Assembly: GCA_036403155.1 (NCBI GenBank)
Contig: DASWRM010000015.1
Span: forward strand, 1-45,682
DNA: 45,682 nt
From: Gaiellales bacterium
Lineage (GTDB): Bacteria; Actinomycetota; Thermoleophilia; Gaiellales; JAICJC01
Reading direction: 5' to 3'
Shown: positions 26,297-33,727 of the stretch, in pieces
How the letters are laid out: each line of letters begins with the position of its first letter
Numbering within the stretch: position 1 is the stretch's first letter
The notes under the pieces: model-generated
What the model was told of the DNA's origin: nothing
Databases searched by the model: none
The model's input: the letters and a program-made list of their open reading frames with translations, nothing else
Made by a program: the position numbers and the translations under genes

Positions 26297-26392
26297 ATGT
26301 CGAAGAACATCACGTCGACGCCGGTGTCTGCCCTTTCGGCGTGGAACCCGGCGAGCTCCGGGAACGCGTCGACGTACACCATCGTCGCGTAA
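26297..26392 (+). CDS. 31-residue orphan peptide
   Basis: A short open frame with an excellent ribosome binding site (GAAAGGAGCGCAAC before ATG 26297) and 28 of 30 sense codons ending in G or C. The peptide begins MSKNITSTPVSAL and ends STYTIVA. It is rich in Ser, Thr, Ala and Asn, with one Trp, one Tyr and no Cys. It is bracketed by the DUF4389 terminator upstream and a short hairpin downstream (26432-26447). No modification enzyme, protease or exporter is adjacent, so a RiPP precursor is only one possibility; a small regulatory or structural peptide is another. I do not recognise a family. Confidence 0.5.
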   Translation: MSKNITSTPVSALSAWNPASSGNASTYTIVA

Positions 26393-26541: not shown

Positions 26542-26727
26542 ATGTATCTGGATAGCGATAGCCGACTGCGGCTTGGATGTGAACGGCAAGAGGTGCGATT
26601 GCGAGCCGCCGAGCGGCGACGGGTCCTCTGCGAGCTGACAAGGGAAGCCGAGCAGCAACCGCCCTCGCCGAGCCTGCTTCGGCGAGCGCTTCGACGGCAG
26701 GCGGCGATCCACGCGGGCGCACGATGA
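26542..26727 (+). CDS. 61-residue basic protein of unknown function
   Basis: ATG 26542 is preceded by GGGAGGTGA at good distance. The protein begins MYLDSDSRLRLGCERQE. It is mainly charged and helical, with alternating Arg/Glu that could form a short coiled coil (VRLRAAERRRVLCELTREAE). It has two Cys residues and no membrane segment. It converges with the CarH-type gene. No family is recognised; the ribosome binding site and position argue that it is real. Confidence 0.5.
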   Translation: MYLDSDSRLRLGCERQEVRLRAAERRRVLCELTREAEQQPPSPSLLRRALRRQAAIHAGAR

Positions 26728-26829: not shown

Positions 26830-27732
26830 TCACCGAATGTCCGCCGCGACCCGAGCGGCGGCAGTGACCGGATCCGCATCGAGCAGTATTGCGCCGAGCT
26901 CGTCGGCGATCCCGCGCGTCGCGCCTGTCCCGGCAACCGCCAGCGGCACCGATGTGGGTCGCGCCCCGCGGGCCAGCGCTCGCAGTCGGGACGACCTGGT
27001 CGCCGCCAGCACGATCAGGGTTGGGCTCAGTTCGGCTGCGGCATCGACCAGCGTCGACGGCGGCGTGTCCGCGCCCAGGTAGGTGATGCGCCAGCCGTGG
27101 GCCCGCAAGGCGATCCCAAAACAGATCAGGCCCAGGTCGTGAAGCTCGCCGCTCGGGCATGCCAGCACGACGCGTGGTCCTCCGCCACCGTCCCAGCCGC
27201 GGGCGAGACCAAGCAGGCGGCCGCGGATCACGCTGGTCGCGAAGTGCTCCTCCGCGATCGTCGCGCTCCCGTCCTGCCATCGCTCTCCGAGGTCGACGAG
27301 ATAGGGCACGACCACATCGGAGATGACCGTGGCGACACCCCAACTGGCGAGCAGCCTATCGAGAACGGCGTGGGCATCCGCATCATCGAACCGTGCGAGT
27401 GTGCGTGCGAGACGGGAGCGCTCCTCGTGCAACCCGTGCCCCATTTCGCCGGAAGCGGCGACCGGCGGCGCAGGCGCCTCCCCGGCCGGTGTGGAAAGCA
27501 CCGCCTCGGCCGCCTGCCGGGCCGAAACGCCGGAGCGGAGCAGCGCCTGCATCGCTCGCACGCGCCGCTCGTCGTCCGGTCCATAGAGCCGAAAACCGCC
27601 GGCAGTCCGCACCGGCGAGAGTAATCCGTAGCGCCGTTCCCACGCTCGCAGGAGGGTCGGAGACGCTCCCACGCGATGGCTGAGCTCGCCGATGCGTACC
27701 AGGAGCGCCGATTGCGGTGTGGGGGCTGCCAT
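26830..27732 (-). CDS. CarH/LitR-type B12-dependent photoreceptor repressor
   Basis: 300 residues from ATG 27732. Residues 13-80 form a MerR-type winged helix (LLRAWERRYGLL-SP-VRTAGGFRLY). Residues 100-180 form the four-helix cobalamin-capping domain with the CarH signature W-x9-E-H (W152, E162, H163). Residues 187-300 are the Rossmann B12-binding domain with E-x-H-x-x-G (E196, H198, G201), where H198 is the expected cobalt ligand in the light. CarH proteins bind DNA as adenosylcobalamin tetramers in the dark and release it on illumination. The gene is divergent from a secreted-protein gene across a 112-base region with matching operator repeats. A TATACT box 10 bases before the ATG implies an almost leaderless mRNA. 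Confidence 0.9.
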   Translation of the reverse strand: MAAPTPQSALLVRIGELSHRVGASPTLLRAWERRYGLLSPVRTAGGFRLYGPDDERRVRAMQALLRSGVSARQAAEAVLSTPAGEAPAPPVAASGEMGHGLHEERSRLARTLARFDDADAHAVLDRLLASWGVATVISDVVVPYLVDLGERWQDGSATIAEEHFATSVIRGRLLGLARGWDGGGGPRVVLACPSGELHDLGLICFGIALRAHGWRITYLGADTPPSTLVDAAAELSPTLIVLAATRSSRLRALARGARPTSVPLAVAGTGATRGIADELGAILLDADPVTAAARVAADIR

Positions 27733-27742
27733 CGCCGTGCAG

Positions 27743-27772
27743 AGTATACACACCTTGTACACACGCTTGACA
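27743..27772 (-). promoter_or_regulatory. promoter of the CarH-type gene
   Basis: On the minus strand, TGTCAA (27772-27767), an 18-base spacer and TATACT (27748-27743) form a promoter. The ATG is 10 bases downstream. It overlaps the operator repeats, which implies autorepression. Confidence 0.55.
27745..27772. promoter_or_regulatory. CarH-type operator, three boxes at 11-base spacing
   Basis: TATACA (27745-27750), TGTACA (27756-27761) and TTGACA (27767-27772) end in ACA at exact 11-base intervals on the + strand. CarH operators are described as tandem 11-bp repeats around a TnTACA core that overlap the -35 element of the target promoter. The third box here is also the -35 of the + strand promoter. 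Confidence 0.7.
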
Positions 27773-27795
27773 GGCCAGCACGGGCCGTGTACATT
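27767..27795 (+). promoter_or_regulatory. promoter of the secreted-protein gene
   Basis: A consensus -35 TTGACA (27767-27772), a 17-base spacer and TACATT (27790-27795) make one of the best sigma-70 promoters in the window. The operator boxes cover the -35, so bound CarH should block RNA polymerase. Confidence 0.65.
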
Positions 27796-27844
27796 CCCGC
27801 CGCTCGTGTCCACTGTCTGTCCAAAGTACAAGGAGGTTCCTCGT

Positions 27845-28453
27845 ATGACTTGCAAGCTTCGGTGGCTGGCGCCGTTCCTGGCGCTGGCCGCGATCGCGGT
27901 GGCCGGCCCGGCCGGTGCGGCCGCTGCCCCAACGGTGCGGCTGGACGGCGCCCGCACGACGCTGTGGACGAATCCCGCCACCACACAGGTGCTGCTCGCC
28001 AACAAGATCGTGCCCCTGCCGACCTGGGGTACCGGCGTCGACGTCAAGTGGACGTCCTCCGGCCCGACGATCGGCTACCGGTTCCCGATCTCCGGCGGAC
28101 ACGTCGACGCGGCCACGCTCGCAGGCCGGATCAACCACACCGGCGGGCTCAAGTTCGTCAACCTCGCCAACGGCAAGACCTTGTCACTGACGAGGTTCCG
28201 GATCGTCATCGACGGGCACCCGCGCCTGACCGCCATCGTCAACGGCGACCCGAAGGTGCGCGTGCCGATCCTCCGACTCGACCTGTCCCGGGCCGCAGTC
28301 TCCAAGCCGCTGCCCTACGTCAAGGTCGGCAACGTCGGCGCCTACCTCAACTCGACAGCCGCGGGCGCTCTCAACAACGCCCTGGGCGTCTCGTTCTTCG
28401 CCCCCAACATCAAGCTGGGCACCGCGTACGTCAACGCGCACGTTGCCGGCTGA
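27845..28453 (+). CDS. secreted protein under predicted CarH control
   Basis: 202 residues from ATG 27845, preceded by AAGGAGG. Residues 1-30 are a clear Sec signal peptide (basic start, LAPFLALAAIAVAG core, Ala-rich cleavage region). The mature part has a beta-rich pattern, with TVRLDGARTTLWTNPATTQV, a GYRFPISGGHVDAATLAG block, an NHTGGLKFVNLANGKTLSL block and a C-terminal FFAPNIKLGTAYVNAHVAG. I do not recognise a named family. The repeated G-G-x-V/L-x-F and hydrophobic strand spacing suggest an extracellular beta-sandwich. It is the only gene downstream of the operator on the + strand and ends at a strong bidirectional hairpin. A role in light or oxidative stress at the cell surface is inference. 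Confidence 0.8.
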   Translation: MTCKLRWLAPFLALAAIAVAGPAGAAAAPTVRLDGARTTLWTNPATTQVLLANKIVPLPTWGTGVDVKWTSSGPTIGYRFPISGGHVDAATLAGRINHTGGLKFVNLANGKTLSLTRFRIVIDGHPRLTAIVNGDPKVRVPILRLDLSRAAVSKPLPYVKVGNVGAYLNSTAAGALNNALGVSFFAPNIKLGTAYVNAHVAG

Positions 28454-28528: not shown

Positions 28529-29524
28529 TCAGCCGTCGCCCTGCCGCCCGGCGGCCAGCTCCTCCATGGCGGATCGCTCGATCACGTCGGGGGGGATGAC
28601 CCCGACTCTGCACTTTGTGCGGGCTCGCAGCGTCGCCATGCGGGTGCCGTCGCCCAGCGCGGCTCCCTCGCCGAGGATGGCGCCCGGCCCGATCTCGGCC
28701 ACCTGCTCGCCGTCGACCTCGACGCTCATCACGCCGTCGAGCAGCAGGTACAACTCGTCGCCCGCCTCCCCCTGCTCGACCAGCGTCTCGCCCTCCTTCA
28801 CCGAGCGGCGCTCGAGCGTCACTCCGCGACTCATCATGGTGCGTGCCAGCTCGCGCTCAAGCGCACTCTCGGCGGCGGTCACCAATGCCTCGGACTCCTC
28901 GTCACCCCACGGGGTGTGGCCGCCGTGCGACTCGCGATACCACTTCTTGAAATCGATCGTTCCCGCCTTCTGGCAGACGGCGCCGCTCTCGTCGTAGATC
29001 CAGTGCCTCGGGAAGGGGCTCGCGCCGACGACCTCGTGCGTCGCGGTGCCATCGGCGCTGATGGTGAGGGCGAGCGTCGTCCACGCCGTGGCCGAACTGA
29101 TGCGCATGAACGGCGGCCCGCTGACACGGCGCGGAGCGGGGAACCCGGCGCGGCCGCCCACGGTCTGCACGAACCGGACGGAGTCCTCGCCGACCACCGG
29201 ATCGGGGCGCAACGTCTCGAACGCGATGCCCGCGACACGAATCTTGCCCGGCCCCACCTTGAAGGTGGTCGTACCGACCAGACCTTCGCCGCTGTGCCCG
29301 TGGGCCACGATCCGCCCATCCTCGACGTCGATCCAGGCGGCCAGGTGATTCGCCTCCCGGAACCGGTCTTCGTCGCGCAGCCGCTCCAGGTCGCCGGGCT
29401 CCAGGCGATCCGGCGGTGGCGGGTCGTAGTGCCCGATACCCAGCTCGAACGGGATCTTCGGCATCCCCTCGATCGCCGCCTCGGGAATCCACGAGATGGC
29501 GGTGACTGACGACTCGATCCGCAT
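28529..29524 (-). CDS. cyclic-nucleotide-binding-domain protein with unknown N-terminal domain
   Basis: 331 residues from ATG 29524, preceded by GAGAGGA. This site decides the start over an ATG further upstream at 29614. The C-terminal 100 residues are a CRP-like cNMP-binding barrel: LERRSVKEGETLVEQGEAGDE, LYLLLDGVMSVEVDG, then a GAILGEGAALGDGTRMATLRA block in the position of the phosphate-binding cassette. No helix-turn-helix follows, so it is not a CRP transcription factor. The first 220 residues (FELGIGHYDPPPPDRLEPGD, then FREANHLAAWIDVEDGRIV) form a domain I do not recognise. It is the third gene of the TetR operon, 64 bases after the SRPBCC gene. Confidence 0.8.
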   Translation of the reverse strand: MRIESSVTAISWIPEAAIEGMPKIPFELGIGHYDPPPPDRLEPGDLERLRDEDRFREANHLAAWIDVEDGRIVAHGHSGEGLVGTTTFKVGPGKIRVAGIAFETLRPDPVVGEDSVRFVQTVGGRAGFPAPRRVSGPPFMRISSATAWTTLALTISADGTATHEVVGASPFPRHWIYDESGAVCQKAGTIDFKKWYRESHGGHTPWGDEESEALVTAAESALERELARTMMSRGVTLERRSVKEGETLVEQGEAGDELYLLLDGVMSVEVDGEQVAEIGPGAILGEGAALGDGTRMATLRARTKCRVGVIPPDVIERSAMEELAAGRQGDG

Positions 29525-29588
29525 GGCGTCCTCTCTGTCGACCGGACGACTGTAAACCATCGTCTCGTCGCTGTCACGGCACGGTGCG

Positions 29589-30041
29589 TCAACCTCTGCC
29601 ATCGTGCGCCTCATCGCCGCGTTCCACTCGCTGCTTCAGCGCCGCGTTCATCTGCTCGAAGCCGGCCTGTGTCTTTCGGATCGTCGAGCGGATCAGCGGG
29701 ACGAGCAGGCCGCTGAACGTCTCCTCCTGGATCAGGCGGGTGCCCTCATCCGTCGGTTCCAGGCGAAAGACATGCTCTCCATCGACGATGCGGGGGAGGA
29801 GGAAGCGGCCGAGCCATCGCAGCTCGTCCTCGGAGCGCACGGTGAGCAGGGTCGGGGTGAAGGACAGTGGCCGGGCGTCGGGAGGCTCGATGCGCACGCT
29901 GAGCTTCTGACCTGGCTCCAGCGCGCCGCTGATGTGGGTGATGAAGGGGTTCCATCGCTCATACGAGGCGAAGTCCGTGAGAGCGCCCCACACGTCGCTG
30001 GGGCTGGCGGCAATGTCGGTTGTTGAGCGGATGGTCGTCAT
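29589..30041 (-). CDS. SRPBCC-family protein
   Basis: 150 residues from ATG 30041, preceded by GAAGGAG. The opening TDIAASPSDVWGALTDFASY, then RWNPFITHISGALEPGQKL, is the standard polyketide-cyclase-2/SRPBCC pattern. It continues with LSFTPTLLTVRSEDELRWLG and a LIQEETFSGLLVPL strand. The fold is a single ligand-binding helix-grip domain. Its ATG overlaps the TetR stop by four bases, so it is co-translated with its likely regulator; its ligand may be related to the TetR inducer. Confidence 0.88.
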   Translation of the reverse strand: MTTIRSTTDIAASPSDVWGALTDFASYERWNPFITHISGALEPGQKLSVRIEPPDARPLSFTPTLLTVRSEDELRWLGRFLLPRIVDGEHVFRLEPTDEGTRLIQEETFSGLLVPLIRSTIRKTQAGFEQMNAALKQRVERGDEAHDGRG

Positions 30042-30815: not shown

Positions 30816-32456
30816 ATGAGTTCGGTCGAGACCACCACAGAGCTCCGCTTCGAAGCCCCGGGGCCGGGCTCATGGCGCATCGACGCCGTGCACTTCCCGC
30901 GTCCGGTCACGCGCTACTGGGCGGAGATGCATCCCGAGCCGTTCTCGCGCGGCGTTCGCCAGTTCGCCGCGTACTACGGGATGGTCATCAACGGCCCCAA
31001 CCATCAGTACGTCAACGGCTTCGCCTACTCGACGATCGCGCCGGTCGACGAGGCCGAGATCCCGGCCCGGCTCCAGCGCGCCGACGAGGTGTGGGCGCAC
31101 AAGGTCTGGCGCGACCAGCTTCGCGAGTGGGACGAGACGTTCAAGCCGGCCTCGGTGGCCACGCACCGCGAGCTCCAGGCGGTCGACCCCGACGCCTTGT
31201 CCGACGAGGCGCTGGTTGCCTACCTCACCCGCTGTGCCGAGCACCACCGCGAGATGATCTTCCAGCACATGCGCTTCACGGCGGCGCCCTCGGTGCCGAC
31301 CGGCGACTTCGTCGTCCACGTCGGTGAGTGGACCGGGCTCTCACCGTCGGAGATCCTGCCCCTCCTGCGCGGGGCGGCGCCGGTGTCCGCCGGTGCCTCG
31401 GCCGAGCTCGAGCGGCTCCGCGCGGCGCTGGAGGACGACGAGCGGGCCCAGCGGCTGCTGGCATCCGACGGCGAGCCGGCCGGCGTCCTCGCCGAGCTGC
31501 GATCGCTCGACGGCGAGGCCGGCGCGGCGGCGTCTGCGTATCTGGACCTGGTCGGCTATCGGCTGCTCGACGGCTTCGATATCTCCGGGCGCTTCGCGCT
31601 CGAGATGCCCGACGCGCTGCTGCGCGCGATTCGCGTGGCCGTGGCCACGTCGCGCCCTGCCGACGACGGCATCGATCAGCGCATCGAGGACGTGCGCGCG
31701 AAGGTGCCCGAGGAGCACCGCGCGGAGTTCGACGACCTGCTGGCCGAGGCCCGTCTCACCTACCGGATCCGCGACGAGCGAGGCGTTTTCAGCGACATCT
31801 GGGCCTCGGGGATCATGCGGCGCGCCGTGCTCGCGGCCGGCCGGCGAGCCGCCTCCAAGGGCCTCGTGCGCGATCCCGAGCATCTCATCGACGCGACCCT
31901 GGACGAGATGCGGGCGCTGCTGCAGGACGGCAACGGCCCATCCGCGGACGAGCTCGCGCAGCGCAGCGAGGTGCGGCTGTCACTGACCGCGAAGGACGTC
32001 CCGCAGCACCTCGGCGACCCACCCTCGCCGCCGCCCGACCCGTCCGGGCTGCCGCCGGGCGCCCGCCGGGTGATGCGTGCGATGGGCCTCGTCATGGGCG
32101 AGATGCACCTGAGCTCCGAGGCAGAACACGAGGCGAAGCTGGTCCGCGGGCTGGCCGCGAGCCCGGGCACATGCGAGGGCATCGCTCGCCGCGTCGCCGG
32201 CCCAGCCGAGTTCGACCGTATCGTCGAGGGCGACGTCCTGCTCACGGAGGCGACGTCCGAGGCCTTCAACATCCTGCTGCCACTGCTCGGGGCCATCGTC
32301 ACCGACAGCGGCGGGCGGCTGTCCCACGCAGCCATCGTCGCGCGCGAGTACGGCATCCCGGGCGTGGTGGGCACCCGCGAGGGCACGCAGCTGATCCCGG
32401 ACGGCGCCCGCGTGCGCGTCGACGGGAACGCGGGTGAGGTGGCGGTGCTCGATTGA
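30816..32456 (+). CDS. PEP-utilizing-enzyme mobile (His) domain protein
   Basis: 546 residues from ATG 30816, preceded by GAAGGTGA. The last 90 residues are the swivelling phosphohistidine domain of PEP synthase/pyruvate phosphate dikinase: GLAASPGTCEGIARRV, VLLTEATSEAFNILLP, then GGRLSHAAIVAREYGIPG with the catalytic His at residue 504. The first 430 residues are mostly helical, rich in YW and acidic residues (YYGMVINGPNHQYVNGFAYS near residue 50). They resemble the middle substrate-binding region of rifampicin phosphotransferase-like proteins. There is no ATP-grasp domain; it is supplied by the next gene, which overlaps by four bases. The two proteins probably form one ATP-dependent phosphotransferase, with an unknown phosphate acceptor. 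Confidence 0.82.
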   Translation: MSSVETTTELRFEAPGPGSWRIDAVHFPRPVTRYWAEMHPEPFSRGVRQFAAYYGMVINGPNHQYVNGFAYSTIAPVDEAEIPARLQRADEVWAHKVWRDQLREWDETFKPASVATHRELQAVDPDALSDEALVAYLTRCAEHHREMIFQHMRFTAAPSVPTGDFVVHVGEWTGLSPSEILPLLRGAAPVSAGASAELERLRAALEDDERAQRLLASDGEPAGVLAELRSLDGEAGAAASAYLDLVGYRLLDGFDISGRFALEMPDALLRAIRVAVATSRPADDGIDQRIEDVRAKVPEEHRAEFDDLLAEARLTYRIRDERGVFSDIWASGIMRRAVLAAGRRAASKGLVRDPEHLIDATLDEMRALLQDGNGPSADELAQRSEVRLSLTAKDVPQHLGDPPSPPPDPSGLPPGARRVMRAMGLVMGEMHLSSEAEHEAKLVRGLAASPGTCEGIARRVAGPAEFDRIVEGDVLLTEATSEAFNILLPLLGAIVTDSGGRLSHAAIVAREYGIPGVVGTREGTQLIPDGARVRVDGNAGEVAVLD

Positions 32457-33727
32457 GCGCGGTCGTTCCGCTCGCAGACGCGGTCGACACATCGCTGTTC
32501 GGATCGAAGGCGGTGGGCCTGGGCGAGGCGTCGCGCTCGGGCCTGCCCCTTCCCCCCGGGATCGCGATCGCCGGTGAGGTGGTCGAGGCGGTCGCCGCCG
32601 GCGACCAGGCGGCCACCGACCAGGTCCGCGAGCTCGTGCGCCCGCTGGGCGGGCCGCTGGCCGTGCGGTCCTCTGCGGTCGACGAGGACGGAGCGGAGGC
32701 CAGCTTCGCCGGGCAGCACCTGACGCTCCTCAACGTTCCATCGGCCGACGAGGTCGGCGACGCGCTGCGGCAGGTCTGGTGGTCCGCCAACTCCGATTCG
32801 GCGATCACCTACCGGCAGCGCGTCGGGCTGTTCACGCGACCGAGCGTCGGCGTCGTCGTGCAGTCGCTCCTCGACCCGGAGTGCGCCGGCGTCATGTTCA
32901 CGCGAAACCCGATCACCGGCGCCGACGAGCGGGTGATCGAGGCCAGCTGGGGCCTCGGCGAGGCGGTCGTGGCCGGCGTCGTCATCCCCGACAGCTACCG
33001 GATCGACGGCAGCTCCGGACAGGTGCTCGAGCGCACGCCGGGGCTGAAGAAGGTCGCGATCCGGACGCGGCCGGAGGGCGGTACCAGCGAGCAGCCGATC
33101 GCGGCCGAGGACGCGGAGCGCCTGTGCCTCGGCGATGCCGAGCTCGAGGAGCTGCACGCGCTGGCAGCTCGCTGCGAGGAGGTGTATGGGCCGGCACGCG
33201 ACATCGAATGGGCGGTCGCCGGTGGCAATCTGTACCTGCTGCAATGCCGCGCGATCACCCGCTCCGCCGAGGGCGACCGCGGGCCGGGCGCCGGCGATCC
33301 GCGGGTCGACATCCTTCGCGGCACGCGGATCTTCGCCGACCTGGACGCCTCAGAGCTCGACTCGATTGCGGCGCTCTTCAAGGAGCGCCGGTTTGCCGCC
33401 GGGGAGACGGTGATCAAGCAGGGCTCCGGAGGCGCCGCCTTCTACGTGATCCAGTCCGGCGAGGCGACCGTCACCATCGACGGCGAGCAGCGCGCGGAGC
33501 TCGGGGCCGGTGACCACTTCGGCGAGATCGCGCTGCTCGACGAGGGTGCTCGCATCGCGACGATCACGGCGGTCAGCGACATGGTCTGTTACGGCCTCAC
33601 GCTCTGGGAGTTCAAGCCGCTGGTGGAGGGGAACGGCGTCATTGCCTGGAAGCTGCTGCAGACCCTCGGCCGCGAGCTGCGCGCGGCGGAGCAGATGCTC
33701 GGGATGCTCCGCAGCGAGCGCGCCTGA
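32453..33727 (+). CDS. PPDK-type ATP-grasp subunit fused to a cNMP-binding domain
   Basis: 424 residues from TTG 32453, overlapping the previous stop (TTGA) with GTGAGG upstream. Residues 1-270 are the PEP-synthase-type ATP-grasp domain: LFGSKAVGLGEASRSGLPLP, GPLAVRSSAVDEDGAEASFAG, GVMFTRNPITG, IEASWGLGEAVV, DIEWAVAGGNLYLLQCR. Residues 282-420 are a CRP-like cyclic-nucleotide-binding domain: ILRGTRIFADLDASELDSI, ETVIKQGSGGAAFYVIQSGE, then a GDHFGEIALLDEGARIATI phosphate-binding cassette. No swivelling His domain is present; it is on the preceding protein. The layout implies that ATP-driven phosphorylation is gated by a cyclic nucleotide. Confidence 0.88.
   Translation: MSAVVPLADAVDTSLFGSKAVGLGEASRSGLPLPPGIAIAGEVVEAVAAGDQAATDQVRELVRPLGGPLAVRSSAVDEDGAEASFAGQHLTLLNVPSADEVGDALRQVWWSANSDSAITYRQRVGLFTRPSVGVVVQSLLDPECAGVMFTRNPITGADERVIEASWGLGEAVVAGVVIPDSYRIDGSSGQVLERTPGLKKVAIRTRPEGGTSEQPIAAEDAERLCLGDAELEELHALAARCEEVYGPARDIEWAVAGGNLYLLQCRAITRSAEGDRGPGAGDPRVDILRGTRIFADLDASELDSIAALFKERRFAAGETVIKQGSGGAAFYVIQSGEATVTIDGEQRAELGAGDHFGEIALLDEGARIATITAVSDMVCYGLTLWEFKPLVEGNGVIAWKLLQTLGRELRAAEQMLGMLRSERA

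What the first reader, a model, noticed from the sequence alone, without database searches (positions are those of the whole stretch)
26830..28453. Intact CarH-type light/B12 switch controlling a secreted protein of unknown function
The regulator has MerR, W-x9-EH and E-x-H-x-x-G signatures of B12 photoreceptors. The divergent gene encodes an exported beta-rich protein, not a carotenoid or photolyase gene as in classic cases. This may be an undescribed output of CarH signalling.
Basis: partly seen in the sequence, partly recalled or inferred. Interest (0 to 1): 0.62.

Follow-up and report, generated by a model that had tools for sequence, protein, structure and literature searches.

The report
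B12 light switch for exported protein
An uncultured actinobacterium carries an intact vitamin-B12 light-sensor repressor whose only strong binding site in the genome sits on the promoter of a neighbouring exported protein rather than a pigment or DNA-repair gene, which widens what this class of light switch may control.

Summary
Window 26830-27732(-) encodes a 300-aa CarH-type regulator: MerR domain, both B12-binding domains and all four published light-receptor signatures. Window 27845-28453(+) encodes a 202-aa exported protein distantly related to the HtaA domain. New evidence ties them together. A triple 11-bp direct repeat of CarH-operator type (27745-27777) overlaps the -35 box of the secreted gene and is unique in the 3.2-Mb genome. 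It scores 32 bits with a matrix built from other genomes; the best site elsewhere in the window scores 5.8. The pair is conserved in a second genus, and in a third genome the unlinked secreted gene carries its own five-unit operator. The genome lacks detectable phytoene synthase, photolyase and fasciclin genes but has a cobalamin adenosyltransferase. Across this CarH clade, envelope or secreted proteins (DUF378, fasciclin, DUF4397) are common partners, so a secreted output is recurrent and the HtaA-like protein is an unusual member of that set. The residue matching Thermus His132 is Gln here and is not His in any clade member compared, so the light-release step may differ. Light and B12 dependence are inferred, not shown. 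New variant of a known kind.

The parts
26830..27732 (-). CarH-type regulator, 300 aa: MerR HTH, B12-binding_2 four-helix bundle, B12-binding Rossmann domain
   Evidence: signatures GxxW, EH, GxxH, GxxxP all present; residue matching Thermus His132 is Gln
27745..27777 (+). CarH-type operator: three tandem 11-bp units TATACACACCT, TGTACACACGC, TTGACAGGCCA
   Evidence: unique in the genome; 32.0 bits with a matrix built without the window
27767..27795 (+). Sigma-70-type promoter of the secreted gene: TTGACA (27767-27772), 17 nt, TACATT (27790-27795); the -35 box lies in the third operator unit
   Evidence: 1 found; shuffles mean 0.0
27788..27798 (+). Additional single operator-like unit TGTACATTCCC over the -10 box, not in 11-bp register with the triple
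   Evidence: 9.1 bits for one unit; weak on its own
27802..27823 (-). Two inverted operator-like units, TGGACAGACAG and TGGACACGAGC, just before the ribosome-binding site
   Evidence: 8.9 and 5.6 bits; 11.5 bits as part of a triple; weak, possible second site
27830..27836 (+). Ribosome-binding site AAGGAGG of the secreted gene
   Evidence: sequence
27845..28453 (+). Exported 202-aa HtaA-like protein; residues 1 to about 28 form a signal-peptide-like stretch
   Evidence: cleavage position judged by eye

Best explanation
This is a B12-dependent light switch with one strong operator, aimed at an exported protein. In the dark, adenosylcobalamin-loaded CarH oligomers sit on the three tandem 11-bp repeats at 27745-27777, covering the -35 box of the secreted gene and the region where carH's own promoter must lie, and repress both. 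Light cleaves the Co-C bond, CarH lets go, and the exported HtaA-like protein and carH are transcribed. The exported protein probably acts in or outside the cell envelope as part of a photo-stress response, in the place that fasciclin-domain proteins hold in related genomes. Shown: gene anatomy, light-receptor residues, operator and its uniqueness, conservation of the pair. Inferred: repression, light and B12 response, autoregulation, protective role.
For: Domains and residues; light signature from PMC11796333. Tandem 11-bp direct repeats overlapping the promoter are the known CarH operator form (PMC8156234). The operator overlaps the only promoter-like site and is unique in the genome, reversed control zero. 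Matrix from 25 other sites: 32.0 bits here, next best outside this promoter 5.8; best in 8.8 Mb of shuffled sequence 18.6. In 399 genomes of the class the triple pattern gives 20 hits against 1 reversed control, 19 of 20 beside a CarH gene. Pair conserved in G004, operators 28.6 and 28.8 bits. In G094 the unlinked secreted gene has a five-unit operator, best triple 22.1 bits, not used to build the matrix. Cobalamin adenosyltransferase present.
Against: No experiment. The residue matching Thermus His132 is Gln; the Thermus H132A variant stays mostly tetrameric after illumination in one study, against an earlier report of disassembly (PMC10442372). The NCBIfam CarH equivalog cut-off is not reached (141 of 400 bits). 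Only two genomes show physical linkage. Weaker operators elsewhere in the genome could be missed by exact patterns.
Confidence: 0.74

Rival explanations
1. The regulator controls the secreted gene but senses adenosylcobalamin level or redox state rather than light.
For: Gln at the His132 position here and no His at it in this clade; in Thermus this His drives bis-His ligation and tetramer release (PMC10442372).
Against: All four published light signatures are intact, and light-responsive SasPcob has Gln and CtMerR has Arg at this position (PMC11796333); photolyase genes neighbour carH in several relatives.
Confidence: 0.17
2. The regulator controls only itself and unlinked genes; the secreted gene is a chance neighbour.
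For: Only two genomes show the two genes side by side.
Against: The operator sits on the -35 box of the secreted gene, is the only strong one found in the genome, and the unlinked copy in G094 has its own operator.
Confidence: 0.05
3. The exported protein is an HtaA-type hemophore, so the switch links light to heme or porphyrin handling outside the cell.
For: Sub-threshold HtaA match here, above-threshold matches in relatives; CR domains bind hemin (PMC12494546).
Against: No tyrosine is conserved over 46 domains of this family, while CR domains need an axial tyrosine; the family's conserved motif is GxIxHSGG instead. The heme region of HtaA is not covered by the match.
Confidence: 0.08

Closest known systems
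Thermus thermophilus CarH (PDB 5C8D, 3WHP)
   Same: Domain order over the full length, W-x9-EH, lower-ligand His motif, tandem triple 11-bp repeat operator that overlaps the promoter
   Different: Distant (E about 1e-30); Gln in place of His132; the target is an exported protein rather than carotenoid genes
Class II LitR of Pseudomonas (PplR1, PmlR2; PMC9758184)
   Same: MerR-type light repressors with TGTACA-type half-sites that control photolyase, SDR and other non-carotenoid genes
   Different: Those lack the full B12-binding region and take the light signal from a LOV protein; operator spacing is TGTACA-N12-TGTACA
Light-induced genes of Mycobacterium kansasii (phrB-tspO-mmpL2, fasciclin mpk83/mpk70; PMC9861118)
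   Same: An actinobacterial light response that includes fasciclin-domain and MMPL genes, the same classes found beside CarH in this clade
   Different: CarH is not mentioned there; the window protein is HtaA-like, not fasciclin
HtaA/ChtA CR domains of Corynebacterium (PF04213)
   Same: Distant sequence similarity; exported single or tandem domains in actinobacteria
   Different: Below the Pfam cut-off; no conserved axial tyrosine in this family

Membership tests
CarH / class I LitR (AdoCbl photoreceptor repressors) | MerR DNA-binding domain followed by B12-binding_2 and B12-binding domains | tested here: met
   all above Pfam cut-offs
CarH / class I LitR (AdoCbl photoreceptor repressors) | W-x9-EH and the lower-ligand His motif; signature GxxW, EH, GxxH, GxxxP | tested here: met
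   GERW, EEH, GELH, GADTP
CarH / class I LitR (AdoCbl photoreceptor repressors) | Operator of three or four tandem 11-bp TnnACA repeats overlapping the promoter | tested here: met
   27745-27777
CarH / class I LitR (AdoCbl photoreceptor repressors) | Binds AdoCbl; light breaks the Co-C bond and releases DNA | not testable with these tools
   needs purified protein
Thermus-type CarH light state (bis-His ligation) | Upper His132 | tested here: not met
   Gln here; no His in the clade members compared. The position varies in confirmed photoreceptors, so it does not define the family
NCBIfam NF052513 CarH equivalog | Score at or above 400 bits | tested here: not met
   141 bits, best family in that library
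HtaA (PF04213) hemophore domain | Pfam gathering score of 24 bits | tested here: not met
   15.5 bits; some relatives pass, up to 35.5 bits
HtaA (PF04213) hemophore domain | Axial tyrosine in helix 1 with a helper His or Tyr | tested here: inconclusive
   no conserved Tyr in 46 aligned domains, but the N-terminal part is not covered by the HtaA match and no usable structure model was obtained

The most novel reading that the evidence does not exclude
An actinobacterial CarH clade lacks the upper histidine used by Thermus CarH yet keeps a working light switch by another release step, and its core output is extracytoplasmic: fasciclin, DUF4397 and HtaA-like exported proteins plus DUF378. In this genome the regulon has shrunk to one strong operator and one exported protein.
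Probability: 0.35. Interest if true: 0.66.

Novelty: new variant of a known kind. Interest (0 to 1): 0.54.

Why it matters
CarH is described mainly as a switch for carotenoid genes. Here a bacterium without detectable phytoene synthase or photolyase genes keeps the receptor and one strong operator, aimed at an exported protein. That points to an extracellular side of bacterial light responses and gives a minimal promoter-receptor pair to test it. It also offers natural CarH proteins without the upper histidine, useful for the open question of how the light state lets go of DNA.

Tried and rejected
A genome-contig scan with the secreted protein found no relative, and a viral-contig scan with the family alignment could not be set up. 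PDB searches with the secreted protein, its family or a tandem relative gave nothing significant. The idea that the neighbouring MMPL and Rieske genes belong to the unit was dropped: about 32% identity to the G004 counterparts and no operator elsewhere in the window. A hemophore role was considered and downgraded.

Full report
What is there. On the minus strand, 26830-27732 encodes a 300-aa protein with a MerR DNA-binding domain (PF13411, 48.1 bits), a B12-binding_2 four-helix bundle (PF02607, 43.2 bits) and a B12-binding Rossmann domain (PF02310, 40.5 bits), all above Pfam's cut-offs. Its best solved relative is Thermus thermophilus CarH, matched over residues 11-284 with E about 1e-30. The NCBIfam CarH equivalog is the best family in that library, but its cut-off is not reached (141 of 400 bits), so this is a CarH-type protein outside the narrow equivalog. 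On the plus strand, 27845-28453 encodes a 202-aa protein with a signal-peptide-like N-terminus and a sub-threshold match to HtaA (15.5 bits, cut-off 24).

Photoreceptor residues. The published light signature for cobalamin-binding domains is GxxW, EH, GxxH, GxxxP (PMC11796333). The window protein has GERW, EEH, GELH and GADTP: all four are intact. One residue differs from Thermus CarH: the position of His132, the upper ligand of the light state, is Gln. None of the compared members of this regulator clade has His there (Gln, Glu, Ser, Ala, Lys or Asp). In Thermus the H132A variant stayed mostly tetrameric after light in one study, against an earlier report that it disassembles (PMC10442372). 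The position varies in receptors that do respond to light: Gln in SasPcob, Arg in CtMerR. Light sensing is thus plausible, but the release step may not be the Thermus one.

The operator. Between the two genes lie three tandem 11-bp units, TATACACACCT TGTACACACGC TTGACAGGCCA (27745-27777). The third unit contains the -35 box of the only promoter-like site found in the region, TTGACA-17-TACATT. Known CarH operators are three or four tandem 11-bp direct repeats with a TnnACA core that overlap the target promoter (PMC8156234). The pattern TNNACAN5TNNACAN5TTGACA occurs once in the 3.2-Mb genome, here, with no hit for the reversed control; the two-unit pattern TRTACAN5TTGACA also occurs only here. 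A position matrix built from 25 promoters of CarH genes in other genomes, without the window, gives this site 32.0 bits. The next best is an inverted site in the same promoter (11.5), then 5.8 bits elsewhere in the window. In 8.8 Mb of first-order shuffled sequence the best score was 18.6 bits. In 399 genomes of the class the triple pattern gives 20 hits against 1 for the reversed control, and 19 of the 20 adjoin a CarH gene (in one of these, L181, only the N-terminal part reads open).

Conservation of the pair. Relatives of the secreted protein at about 50% identity or more occur in 3 of 101 genomes searched around the window: its own, G004 (same family, other genus) and G094 (another family of the order). 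All three are among the 16 genomes with a CarH of this clade; by hypergeometric count p is about 0.003, with thresholds chosen after seeing the data. In G004 the order is carH, divergent DUF378, then the HtaA-like gene, SDR/DUF2867 and MMPL, with operators of 28.6 and 28.8 bits in the divergent region. In G094 the HtaA-like gene is on a different contig from carH, yet a run of five 11-bp units (L037 9364-9413; best triple 22.1 bits, not used to build the matrix) ends just before its ribosome-binding site. The CarH proteins of these three genomes also fall in one clade of a quick tree (supports not examined). The same-genus genome G001 lacks the secreted gene and has no CarH of this clade. Physical linkage is shown in only two genomes; the G094 operator is the independent support.

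What the clade controls. In the CarH clade the divergent or adjacent genes are repeatedly DUF378 membrane proteins, secreted fasciclin-domain proteins, SDR or SDR/DUF2867 proteins, MMPL proteins and photolyases, including cultured Conexibacter arvalis (L094: carH, DUF378, fasciclin). A Nitriliruptoraceae locus (L091) has a secreted DUF4397 protein behind a 32-bit operator. Envelope or exported outputs are therefore common in this clade, and the HtaA-like protein is an unusual member of that set. Light-induced fasciclin, mmpL2 and phrB genes are reported in Mycobacterium kansasii (PMC9861118), without mention of CarH. A search of the open-access library found no paper joining CarH to bacterial fasciclin proteins; most subscription papers are not held.

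The window's genome. It is a 98.4%-complete draft in the same order as Gaiellaceae bacterium KatS3mg012 (G009 and record BPGK01000001 agree in contig length and CarH position). Profile searches find no photolyase FAD domain, no fasciclin domain and no squalene/phytoene synthase, while each rang in control genomes. An ATP:cob(I)alamin adenosyltransferase is present, so the chromophore can be made from cobalamin. Absence from a draft is not proof.

The secreted protein. It belongs to a family found in 66 of 299 genomes of the class, often as tandem domains, some of which pass the HtaA cut-off. A GxIxHSGG-type motif with a His in 45 of 45 rows marks the family, and no tyrosine is conserved over 46 domains. 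Hemin-binding CR domains use an axial tyrosine (PMC12494546), so a heme function is not supported. Its role is inferred only from its export and its position in place of fasciclin proteins. The other members of this family whose flanks were fetched show no CarH operator, so CarH control is a property of this subgroup.

Verdict. Repression in the dark and release by light are inferred from family knowledge. It is a new variant of a known kind.

Noticed in passing
26297-26392 (+): 31-codon ORF MSKNITSTPVSALSAWNPASSGNASTYTIVA with a good ribosome-binding site, between the DUF4389 gene and carH; possibly a small peptide gene.
   Followed up: no
26542-26727 (+): 61-codon ORF with a GGGAGGTG ribosome-binding site; no Pfam match.
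   Followed up: partly
28529-29614 (-) and 32453-33727 (+): Two nearby proteins appear to carry cyclic-nucleotide-binding domains: the first matches PF00027; the second looks by eye like a PEP-synthase N-terminal domain followed by such a domain.
   Followed up: partly
L038 3123-3150 and L047 4948-4921: CarH-type operators (20.2 and 21.5 bits) lie upstream of fasciclin genes that are not directly divergent from carH, so fasciclin proteins are likely targets in their own right.
   Followed up: partly
L052 4691-4729, L088 6939-6912, L098 10483-10510: Further distal operator-like sites (22 to 30 bits) near SRPBCC and other genes suggest larger CarH regulons in some relatives.
   Followed up: no
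L043 8088-8996 (-): A clade member with Tyr in place of the signature Trp (GERYARNEVSVAQEH) and no divergent partner gene; its light response may be altered.
   Followed up: no
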